NCBI RefSeq assembly: GCF_001589285.1
Contig: NZ_JEMA01000444.1
Span: 1-64,000 of the forward strand
Reading direction: 5' to 3'
Origin: Sorangium cellulosum
GTDB taxonomy: Bacteria; Myxococcota_A; Polyangia; Polyangiales; Polyangiaceae
DNA length: 64,000 nucleotides
Shown piece after piece: positions 48,559-54,303 of the stretch. The notes under the pieces are model-generated. The model ran no database searches. It had not been told where the DNA came from and saw only the letters and a program-made list of their open reading frames with translations. The position numbers and the translations under genes are program-made. How positions within the stretch are numbered: the stretch's first letter is position 1; the number at the start of each line of letters is the position of its first letter.

Positions 48559-51500
48559 ATGAGCCGGGAGACCCTCGCTCCAGGGACGGTGTTCCAGAGC
48601 CGCTATGAGATCGTCTCGTTGCTCCGGGAGGGCAGCATCGCTGATGCCTACAAAGGGCGGGAGATCGCGAGCGGGCAGCCGGTCGTCCTCAAGGTCGTAC
48701 GCCTGGTCCGGGACGGAGACCCAGCGGACCTGGTGCGGCGCTACGGCGTGCGGTTTTTACGGGGAATGCGCGTCTGCGCGCGTCTCCAGCATCCCAGCAT
48801 CGTCCGGATCATCGCGTCCGGGCGAGGGGACGACGGGAAGCTGTATGCCGTCTTCGAGTTCGTGCACGGGCAGAGTTTGGCCGAACTGCTGGCCGAGCAG
48901 GGCGCGCTCGATCCGCTGGAAGCGCGGCACCTGATGCTGCGGGTTCTGGATGCGCTGGGCTTCGCGCACCGGCACGGCATCGTCCACGGGGACATCAGGC
49001 CGACCCACGTGATGGTAGCGCCCGCGGGGGCACTGCGGAACGCGCTGGTGCTCGACTTCGGCTTCGGCGCGTTCGCCGCGAGCGCGCGCGCCGGCCAGGC
49101 CGACGCCCTCGCCCACGGCAGGGAGATGCTCCTGGGCTTTCCGTCTTACGCAGCGCCGGAGCAGCTTCGGGGCTTCCCGCCGACGGCGCGCTCGGACCTG
49201 TACGCCTGGGGACTCGTGTTTCTCGAGTGCCTCACGGGCAGGCGTACGGGCTGCAGCAGCCCGCCGGAGGCAAGGGGTGTTCTGCGGGAGGACCGCGAGC
49301 CGGCGCGGGTCCCTGCCGCGCTGCTCGAGCATCCGCTCGGCGCGATATTGCGGCACGCGACGAACGAAGATGTCGCGGCGCGCGCCGTCACGGCCGACGA
49401 CCTCCTGCGCGAGCTCGATGCCTGCCAGGTGGATGGGCTCCGCCGGGAGGACCTCATCAAACCAGACGCGCCGACGGACGCCGAGATGAGGCGAGAGGAG
49501 GGCCGGGGCGCGCGGGAAGAGGGGAACCGGGACGCCGCAAGCCCGGCGCCGCGGCCGCCGGCGTACATGAGCTCGTCCAGAGCTTCCGTCACTTCCGTTG
49601 AAGAGCGCACGCTCGCGTTCGCCCACACACCTCTCGCTGAACACGCGGGAAGCGCGATCCCCGACGAGGGAGCGCAGGGAGGCATGCCCGCTCCCCCGGA
49701 GGCTGCGGCGAAGCTGGCGGAGCCTCTCGTGGACCCCCTGCTTCCAGCCGCCGGCAGCACGATCAAGCATTACGAGATCATCCGCAAGCTGGGCCAGGGC
49801 GGCATGAGCGTCGTGTACCTGGCCCGCGACCCGAGGCTTGGTCGCCTGGTCGCGATCAAGTTCCTCCTCAAGTACAGCGGGCGTGGGATCGAGCGATTCC
49901 TCGCCGAGGCGCGGGCCACGGCGCGCTGCCGGCACGAGAACATCGTGGTCATCTACGATGTGGATGAGATTCGTGGATACCCGTACCTCGTGCTCGAATA
50001 CATCAAGGGTCCCACGCTGCGCAGATGGATGCACCAGCGCGAGCACCAGAGCGCGCACGAGTCCCCCGGTGCCCACACGCCGCCCGGCCCACCGGTGCCC
50101 GACGTCGTGATCCAGCACATGATTCCTGTCGTTCGCGCGCTGGTCTGCGCGCATGAGCTCGGGATCGTACACCGCGATCTGAAGCCGGAAAACGTCCTCC
50201 TGGATCACGCCGGCTGCATCAAGGTGCTGGATTTCGGCATCGCCAAGCAGATGGAGGCCAGAAGGGTCGCGACGATCACGGGCACGCGGGCAGCGCTCGC
50301 CGGTCGCGCTGGCCAGCCTCGGAAAAGTGCGCCCCTCGGCACACCCCGGTACATGTCGCCCGAGCAACTGCTGGGCGGTGGCGTCGATCATCGCACCGAC
50401 CTCTGGGCCGTCGGCATCATGCTCTACGAGCTGCTCACAGGGAAGCACCCGCTGGACCCATTCTCGTTCGCACGGCTCTCGGCCATCGTCGATTTCAATG
50501 TTCCCATGCCCAGCCTGAGCGAGAGCCGCCCAGAATTGGAGGCGCTCGGCGCGCTCGTCGACCGTTGCTTGAGGAAGAGCAAAGACGAGCGCATCGGCTC
50601 GGCCCGGGAGCTGCTCGCCGAGCTCGAAGCGCTCCTGCCTGGCCGAAGGACGCCCCAGTTGGGCGATGAGGAGAGCCCATTCGCCGGACTGTCCCCATTT
50701 CAGGAGGCGGACGCGGCGCTCTTCTTCGGCCGCGATCGCGACATTGCTGCCCTGGCGGCACGGCTGCGCAACCAGCCGCTCCTGGCCGTCGCCGGGCCTT
50801 CCGGAGCGGGCAAATCATCGATCGTGCGCGCGGGCGTGATCCCGGCGTTGAAGGCATCCGGGGACCGCTGGGAAGCGTTCGTCCTGCGCCCGGGCCGCCG
50901 CCCCCTGTCCGCGCTCGTCGATGTGCTCGTGCAGGTCGCCGAGGCGGAGGCCGCGAACCGGGCGGCGGCGGGAGCTGGGGCAACGACGGACGCGCCCGAG
51001 ATCCCCGATCACGACGGGCTGGTCGCCACCCTGCGCACCCAGCCGGGCTATCTGGGTGCCCGGCTGCGCGCGCGGTGCCGCCGTGGCGGCAACAGGCACC
51101 GCATCGTGCTCTTCGTCGATCAGTTCGAGGAGCTCTACACGCTGGGTGCGTCTCCGGAGGAATGGGCGGTGTTCGTCGCCTGCCTGGAAGGTGCGGCCGA
51201 CGACGCCTCGTCGCCCCTGCGCGTCCTGCTCGCCATCCGCTCGGACTTCCTCGATCGTGTGGCTGATGATCGCGAGTTCATGGTCGACGTGATCCGCGGG
51301 CTCTGGTTCCTGCCGCCCATGGGGCGCGACGGCCTGCGCGAAGCCTTGACGCGGCCGCTCGAGGCGGCCGGATATCGCTTCGAGGCCGCGGAGCTCATCG
51401 AGCACATGCTGGGCACACTCGAGAGAACCCGCAGCCCCTTGCCGCTTTTGCAGTTCACGGCCACGAAGCTGTGGGAGGCGCGCGATCGCGAGCACCGGCT

Positions 51501-54303: not shown

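What the first reader, a model, noticed from the sequence alone, without database searches (positions are those of the whole stretch)
48559..54303. Pseudokinase-kinase-nSTAND-double propeller receptor
Two kinase domains lie in tandem; the first has HGD and IRPTH in place of HRD and LKPEN, the second is canonical. An nSTAND ATPase, one membrane helix and 14 WD40 blades follow. The regulatory logic (pseudokinase gating, propeller sensing) appears uncommon. The 14 blades fit two closed rings of seven.
Basis: partly seen in the sequence, partly recalled or inferred. Interest (0 to 1): 0.55.

Follow-up and report, generated by a model that had tools for sequence, protein, structure and literature searches.

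The report
Pseudokinase-kinase-STAND receptor with twin propellers
A soil bacterium of the genus Sorangium carries a large, probably membrane-spanning sensor protein in which a dead kinase has been stuck onto a live kinase, an ATP-driven switch and a repeat-built binding surface like that of fungal non-self recognition proteins; the parts are known kinds, but this fusion was found only in this genus.

Summary
One 1914-residue gene (48559-54303) encodes kinase 1, kinase 2, nSTAND1 ATPase, one hydrophobic helix, 14 WD40 blades of exactly 42 residues and a two-cysteine tail. Kinase 1 is best read as a pseudokinase: all 10 such domains compared from these fusions lack the catalytic-loop Asn and have HG for HR; only 2 of 10 keep Lys, HxD Asp and DFG Asp together. 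They form one clade (100/99) within a kinase-cyclase family that is otherwise intact, next to two degenerate Sorangium kinase-cyclases, so decay seems older than the fusion. Kinase 1 was seen in 5 of 6 Sorangium genomes and in 0 of 14 kinase-nSTAND loci fetched from outside the genus: a genus-level add-on to an older receptor. Blades vary at known top-face contact positions, including the four codons selected in fungal HET-D/E, and the window's inner blades are homogenised. Charge bias and an invariant cysteine pair favour periplasmic propellers. WD40 kinases and twin 14-blade STAND propellers are already known, so 'uncommon' applies only to the pseudokinase.

The parts
48547..48553 (+). Ribosome-binding-site-like GGAGGAG, 5 nt before the ATG at 48559
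   Evidence: read directly from sequence
48592..49428 (+). Kinase 1 (aa 12-290): predicted pseudokinase, HGD/IRPTH, degenerate glycine loop, keeps Lys45, Asp145, Asp166
   Evidence: kinase fold in AF2 model (pLDDT 83.6, pTM 0.85), best PDB hits M. tuberculosis PknB
49456..49752 (+). Linker between the kinases (about aa 300-398), fast evolving
   Evidence: median nonsynonymous/synonymous ratio 1.14 over 45 pairs
49771..50616 (+). Kinase 2 (aa 405-686): canonical Hanks-type kinase
   Evidence: 156.2 bits Pkinase; motifs
50677..51930 (+). nSTAND1 ATPase (aa 707-1124), Walker [10 protein letters not shown], Walker B FVDQFEE
   Evidence: 370.4 bits; motifs read
52096..52152 (+). Hydrophobic (transmembrane) helix, best 19-mer aa 1180-1198
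   Evidence: hydropathy 2.12; more positive flank on the nSTAND side
52342..53223 (+). WD40 blades 1-7 (proposed ring 1)
   Evidence: ring boundary inferred
53224..54105 (+). WD40 blades 8-14 (proposed ring 2); blades 10-11 and 12-13 are a duplicated pair, 1 mismatch in 252 bases
   Evidence: ring boundary inferred
54133..54300 (+). Conserved tail WTATTYC...C with Cys1865 and Cys1889
   Evidence: two Cys at the same spacing in 21 of 21 proteins with the tail

Best explanation
A single-pass inner-membrane receptor kinase. Shown by sequence: the domain order, loss of conserved catalytic motifs in kinase 1, intact kinase 2 and nSTAND motifs, a hydrophobic helix, 14 blades whose variation sits on the top-face contact positions, and a conserved two-Cys tail. 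Inferred: the propellers lie in the periplasm and bind a protein or peptide ligand; binding lets the nSTAND ATPase cluster the chains; clustered kinase 2 domains phosphorylate each other and then a cytosolic substrate; kinase 1, a retired kinase taken from the kinase-cyclase family, is an accessory regulatory or docking surface for kinase 2 or its substrates rather than the essential gate.
For: Domains. Kinase 1: 0 of 10 fused copies keep the catalytic-loop Asn, 10 of 10 have HG for HR, while 64 of 76 kinase-1-type rows keep the Asn; the 12 that lack it form one clade, 100/99. Kinase 1 still shows constraint: nonsynonymous/synonymous ratio under 1 in 45 of 45 pairs, median 0.65, against linker 1.14. 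Topology: net charge higher on the nSTAND side of the helix in 20 of 20 proteins with both flanks, two invariant tail cysteines in 21 of 21, 10 of 21 with no other Cys after the helix. Blades: columns 12, 14, 30, 32 carry excess variation, exact P 0.00005 in the window and at most 0.0013 in 8 of 8 arrays; these match HET-D/E codons 7, 9, 25, 27 (PMC1805685 passages), and three of them the R1-2, R1, D-1 contact positions (PMC3419727 passages). Best fold match of the repeat part is 2YMU.
Against: No ligand, substrate, phosphorylation or localisation data. Kinase 1 is not needed by the core: no kinase-1 hit in 14 of 14 kinase-nSTAND loci fetched from outside the genus, and one Sorangium copy keeps only the start of kinase 1. 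Kinase 1 is less constrained than kinase 2 in 41 of 45 pairs, which also fits slow decay. pN over pS at the variable columns is only about 1.3 in the window and not significant by bootstrap. In the C221/So0157-2 pair many blades keep their variable residues, which argues against a fast arms race there. The C-side of the helix also carries Arg.
Confidence: 0.5

Rival explanations
1. Kinase 1 is a vestige: a former kinase carried along by a gene fusion and slowly decaying, with no role of its own. The working receptor is kinase 2-nSTAND-TM-WD40-tail.
For: Ratio higher than kinase 2 in 41 of 45 pairs, and a Sorangium copy (G019 C1) with kinase 1 cut down to its start; catalytic residues lost in different combinations in different copies; core without kinase 1 elsewhere.
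Against: Ratio under 1 in 45 of 45 pairs and clearly under the linker's; many invariant residues among five own-genome copies; the WD40-bearing Sorangium copies examined keep all or part of it.
Confidence: 0.25
2. Kinase 1 is an integrated decoy: a dead copy of the cell's own kinase-cyclase signalling kinases that detects something attacking those kinases, in a receptor with a STAND switch and live kinase output.
For: Kinase 1 descends from kinase-cyclase kinases, and intact relatives occur in the same genome (L041, L042). [quoted passage not shown] Plant tandem kinase and pseudokinase immune proteins are analogues (listing only).
Against: No attacker or binding partner known; no conserved neighbours; no evidence that the protein acts in defence.
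Confidence: 0.1
3. The helix does not insert as drawn, or the propellers stay in the cytosol, so this is a soluble NLR-like kinase sensing a cytosolic ligand, as WRAP and HET-E type proteins are thought to do.
For: Arg residues on both sides of the helix; fungal NLR relatives are intracellular receptors (abstract in listing).
Against: Hydropathy 1.88-2.83 in 21 of 21, net charge bias in 20 of 20, invariant Cys pair in 21 of 21; WD40 of kinase proteins predicted periplasmic in Planctomycetota (PMC11032199, passages).
Confidence: 0.15
4. The window's kinase 1 is still weakly active or ATP-binding, since it keeps Lys45, Asp145 and Asp166.
For: Those three residues are present; kinase fold in the model.
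Against: Asn replaced by His, catalytic-loop Lys by Arg, glycine loop degenerate; its nearest relative in So ce26 has HGG.
Confidence: 0.12

Closest known systems
   Same: Kinase 2, nSTAND1, one helix, about 14 blades' length of repeats, tail with the same two cysteines
   Different: No kinase 1; blade uniformity not measured
TOMM system kinase/cyclase fusion protein, TIGR03903
   Same: Its N-terminal kinase is the source family of kinase 1
   Different: Cyclase and following parts absent here; window protein 349.5 bits against a cut-off of 705.75
WRAP, Npun_R6612 of Nostoc punctiforme (PDB 2YMU)
   Same: 14 near-identical WD40 blades on a STAND ATPase; best fold match
   Different: No kinase part is mentioned in the passages read; blades there even more uniform; STAND subfamily not compared here
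HET-D/HET-E NWD proteins of Podospora anserina
   Same: NTPase plus repeated WD40 with variation at the same four top-face codons and homogenised repeats
   Different: NACHT and HET domains instead of nSTAND1 and kinases; selection shown there, not here
PkwA of Thermomonospora curvata and other WD40 kinases
   Same: Ser/Thr kinase plus highly repetitive WD40 (passages)
   Different: Seven blades in PkwA; no pseudokinase or nSTAND mentioned in the passages read
JAK-type pseudokinase-kinase tandems
   Same: Dead kinase immediately before a live one (general knowledge; abstract in listing)
   Different: No relation tested; JAKs are cytosolic tyrosine kinases (general knowledge)

Membership tests
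Pseudokinase (Hanks fold) | Kinase fold | tested here: met
   AF2 pLDDT 83.6, pTM 0.85; PknB best hit, E 6.2e-19
Pseudokinase (Hanks fold) | Loss of one or more catalytic motifs | tested here: met
   Asn to His, HRD to HGD, degenerate glycine loop; 10 of 10 copies lack the Asn
Pseudokinase (Hanks fold) | No phosphotransfer activity | not testable with these tools
   needs an assay
nSTAND1 STAND NTPase | Profile match and Walker A/B | tested here: met
   365.9 bits, cut-off 27.1; GPSGAGKSS and FVDQFEE
TOMM kinase/cyclase TIGR03903 | Full-length score above cut-off, cyclase present | tested here: not met
   349.5 bits under 705.75; no cyclase family among the best 25 Pfam matches
Highly repetitive (WRAP-type) WD40 array | Median blade identity over 60% (criterion in PMC9218822, passage) | tested here: met
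   median 86% amino acid identity among 12 inner blades
Double seven-bladed propeller | Two closed rings of seven | tested here: inconclusive
   14 blades; 2YMU best Foldseek hit, but model pTM 0.53 and 8-bladed chains align over the first ring with lower rmsd
Fungal HET-D/E NWD non-self recognition proteins | HET effector domain and NACHT | tested here: not met
   Pfam shows nSTAND1 and kinases in those places; the best 25 of 53 families were shown
Fungal HET-D/E NWD non-self recognition proteins | Repeat variation at codons 7, 9, 25, 27 | tested here: met
   exact P 0.00005
Fungal HET-D/E NWD non-self recognition proteins | Positive selection at those codons | tested here: inconclusive
   pN 0.383, pS 0.296, bootstrap P 0.27 in the window; below 0.05 in 1 of 8 arrays
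Single-pass membrane receptor kinase | Helix inserts, sensor outside | tested here: inconclusive
   hydropathy, charge bias and Cys pair favour it; no topology experiment

The most novel reading that the evidence does not exclude
A membrane-spanning bacterial NLR-like tandem-kinase receptor whose dead kinase is an integrated decoy of the cell's own kinase-cyclase signalling kinases, and whose propellers, homogenised between blades but varied at their top-face contacts, form a non-self or kin recognition repertoire outside the inner membrane.
Probability: 0.08. Interest if true: 0.82.

Novelty: new variant of a known kind. Interest (0 to 1): 0.5.

Why it matters
It gives a bacterial natural series in one gene family: core receptor without kinase 1, with a dead kinase 1, and with a truncated one, plus the source kinase family with intact and degenerate members. 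That makes the question of what a pseudokinase adds to a neighbouring kinase testable in a prokaryote. The repeat part also shows variation at the same four WD40 positions that are selected in fungal allorecognition proteins, placed on a probable outside-facing receptor in a social bacterium.

Tried and rejected
Defence annotation: PADLOC hits were many generic kinase models (PD-T4-6, mad6) and one kinase model covering kinase 2 to the helix (C3a189, 239.5 bits); not taken as evidence of a defence role. Gene neighbourhood: no ORF under 1000 aa was shared between loci except the same So ce26 region fetched twice and one neighbour shared by L046 and L171; so no partner gene was inferred. Positive selection on blades: not shown. 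Two rings of seven from structure prediction: not settled. Paper searches for this architecture (listings, with passages from some papers) showed no description of a pseudokinase-kinase-nSTAND-WD40 protein; the library holds only openly licensed papers, and most listed papers were not opened. The TOMM paper search gave nothing used.

Errors corrected on the way: alignment A1 used three loci on the wrong strand and was replaced by A2; translated L170, L171 and L174 on the wrong strand, redone, whose numbers are the ones quoted. Coordinates printed for minus-strand ORFs are in reverse-complement numbering.

Rows dropped: duplicate ORFs and the first six short loci were left out before the count, and rows under 150 bits were not used; 76 kinase-1-type rows remain. 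Blade statistics leave out the first and last blade of each array; G058 was left out because its contig ends after 3 blades. Structure prediction of kinase 1 used 31 sequences, the window and 30 of the 78 loci.

Full report
What is there. The gene runs from the ATG at 48559 to 54303 on the + strand, behind a GGAGGAG box. The 1914-residue product holds kinase 1 (aa 12-290), a linker, kinase 2 (405-686), nSTAND1 (707-1124), a hydrophobic helix (from 1180), 14 WD40 blades (window 52342-54105) and a tail with Cys1865 and Cys1889. The genome is that of a Sorangium: genomes listed as 'same genus' match So ce26, So0157-2 and So ceGT47 in size and in the coordinates of their hits. It is a draft of 1269 contigs with at least 152 kinase matches.

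Kinase 1 is best read as a pseudokinase. The window copy keeps the VAIK-type Lys, the HxD Asp and the DFG Asp but has His for the metal-binding Asn, Arg for the catalytic-loop Lys, HGD for HRD and a broken glycine loop. Relatives decide the case better than this one sequence. In the 10 copies fused to kinase 2 and nSTAND, 0 of 10 keep the Asn, 6 of 10 the Lys, 5 of 10 the HxD Asp, 6 of 10 the DFG Asp, and 2 of 10 all three of the last. Of 76 kinase-1-type rows, 64 keep the Asn. The 12 that do not form one clade (100/99): the 10 fused copies (themselves 100/99) and two degenerate Sorangium kinase-cyclases. So the loss probably came before the fusion, in a kinase-cyclase of the TIGR03903 type. 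The model of kinase 1 is a kinase fold nearest to PknB. What the motif residues do is general knowledge of protein kinases.

Kinase 1 was added to an older receptor. In 60 genomes of the family, kinase-1-like matches at E 1e-60 were found in 7, nSTAND-helix matches in 15. Of 15 loci fetched, 14 lie outside the genus and none of these shows a kinase-1 hit; 12 of them carry kinase 2, nSTAND, helix, repeats and the same tail. The 15th, a Sorangium copy (G019 C1), keeps only the start of kinase 1. In the genus, 5 of 6 held genomes have the fusion; So ceGT47 gave three matches in frames of 1403-1471 aa, of which the one examined is a kinase-cyclase. Two genomes have tandem neighbouring copies (L172, L170), and contig C170 of the own genome holds the end of one copy beside the start of another. 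Among the 78 loci from 84,980 species, kinase 1 with kinase 2 and nSTAND behind it appeared only in Sorangium.

Constraint. By a simple Nei-Gojobori count over 45 pairs the median nonsynonymous/synonymous ratio is 0.65 for kinase 1, 0.51 for kinase 2, 0.36 for nSTAND and 1.14 for the linker; kinase 1 lies under 1 in 45 of 45 and above kinase 2 in 41 of 45. The pairs share ancestry, so these are not independent tests. Kinase 1 is maintained, but less strictly.

Propellers. Seven of 8 full arrays from the genus have 14 blades, one (So0157-2) has 18; the helix-to-tail distance is 651-726 residues in 20 of 21 proteins. In the window the 12 inner blades have median identity 86% (protein) and 90% (DNA); blades 4 and 6, and 10 and 12, are identical in DNA. 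All 12 find their nearest relative, by framework DNA, in the same array, 62 of 100 over all arrays against 12% by random label; 15 of 16 end blades find theirs at the same end of another array. The middle is thus homogenised and the ends are fixed. The draft assembly could add to this in the window genome, but three of the other arrays come from complete chromosomes. Columns 12, 14, 30 and 32 carry excess variation. By spacing these are codons 7, 9, 25 and 27 of the HET-D/E repeats, which flank conserved codons 8 and 26 (PMC1805685, passages), and 12, 14, 30 are R1-2, R1 and D-1, the top-face contact residues (PMC3419727, passages). High diversity at such sites in highly repetitive WD40 proteins is already reported (PMC5587647, passages). 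Selection itself is not shown. Whether the rings are 7+7 is open: the best fold match is 2YMU, which is 7+7, yet the model had pTM 0.53 and aligned over about residues 54-382 to 8-bladed chains with rmsd 2.5-3.1, against 3.3-3.9 for the 7-bladed WRAP designs (that ODA16, Rsa4, TBLR1 and Fbw7 have eight blades is recalled).

Topology. The helix has hydropathy 1.88-2.83 in 21 of 21 proteins. Net charge is higher before than after the helix in 20 of 20 that show both flanks. The tail has exactly two cysteines at one spacing in 21 of 21, and 10 of 21 have no other cysteine beyond the helix. This favours inside kinases and outside propellers with a disulfide in the tail, but it is inference. The positive-inside rule and the rarity of free cysteines outside are general knowledge.

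Reading. The best-supported mechanism is a receptor kinase: outside propellers bind, nSTAND clusters, kinase 2 cross-activates, kinase 1 serves as an added surface. The decoy reading is the boldest one not excluded; conflict systems in multicellular bacteria use dead enzymes with live counterparts in the same cell (PMC7159879, passages).

Novelty. Known: WD40 kinases, predicted periplasmic WD40 on membrane kinases (PMC11032199, passages), 14-blade twin propellers on STAND ATPases (PMC9218822, passages). Not found in the searches: a pseudokinase in front of a kinase-nSTAND-WD40 receptor. I rate it a new variant of a known kind.

Noticed in passing
L037 (own genome, C273) 816-5207 +: A kinase-cyclase fusion whose kinase is itself degenerate (HGD, no Asn), sister with So ce26 L047 to the fused pseudokinases; a dead kinase on an otherwise TIGR03903-scoring cyclase protein.
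   Followed up: partly
L036 (C424) 2356-6717 + and L038 (C301) 3-3278 +: Kinase-nSTAND proteins of the same genome ending in what looks like a formylglycine-generating-enzyme/sulfatase-modifying-type domain (by eye) instead of WD40.
   Followed up: no
L034 (C304) 3072-5963 + and L035 (C322) 3655-6534 +: Close kinase-nSTAND-helix relatives that end in a coiled-coil-like stretch with no WD40 seen, so the sensor part may have been swapped or lost within the genome.
   Followed up: no
L032 (C170) 1-6149 and L172, L170: Copies lie in tandem pairs; contig breaks in the draft fall inside such copies, so the own genome may hold more than the four starts seen.
   Followed up: partly
L173 (So0157-2) 2051-8353 +: 18 blades instead of 14, with blades 2-4 identical in protein sequence; 18 does not divide into rings of seven.
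   Followed up: no
L174 (G019 C1): A Sorangium copy with kinase 1 truncated to its first part (Gln at the Lys position) ahead of an intact kinase 2.
   Followed up: yes
window 46136-47767 -: A secreted glycosidase-like protein with a low-complexity Gly/Ser-rich start lies upstream, divergent (by eye); not found next to relatives.
   Followed up: no
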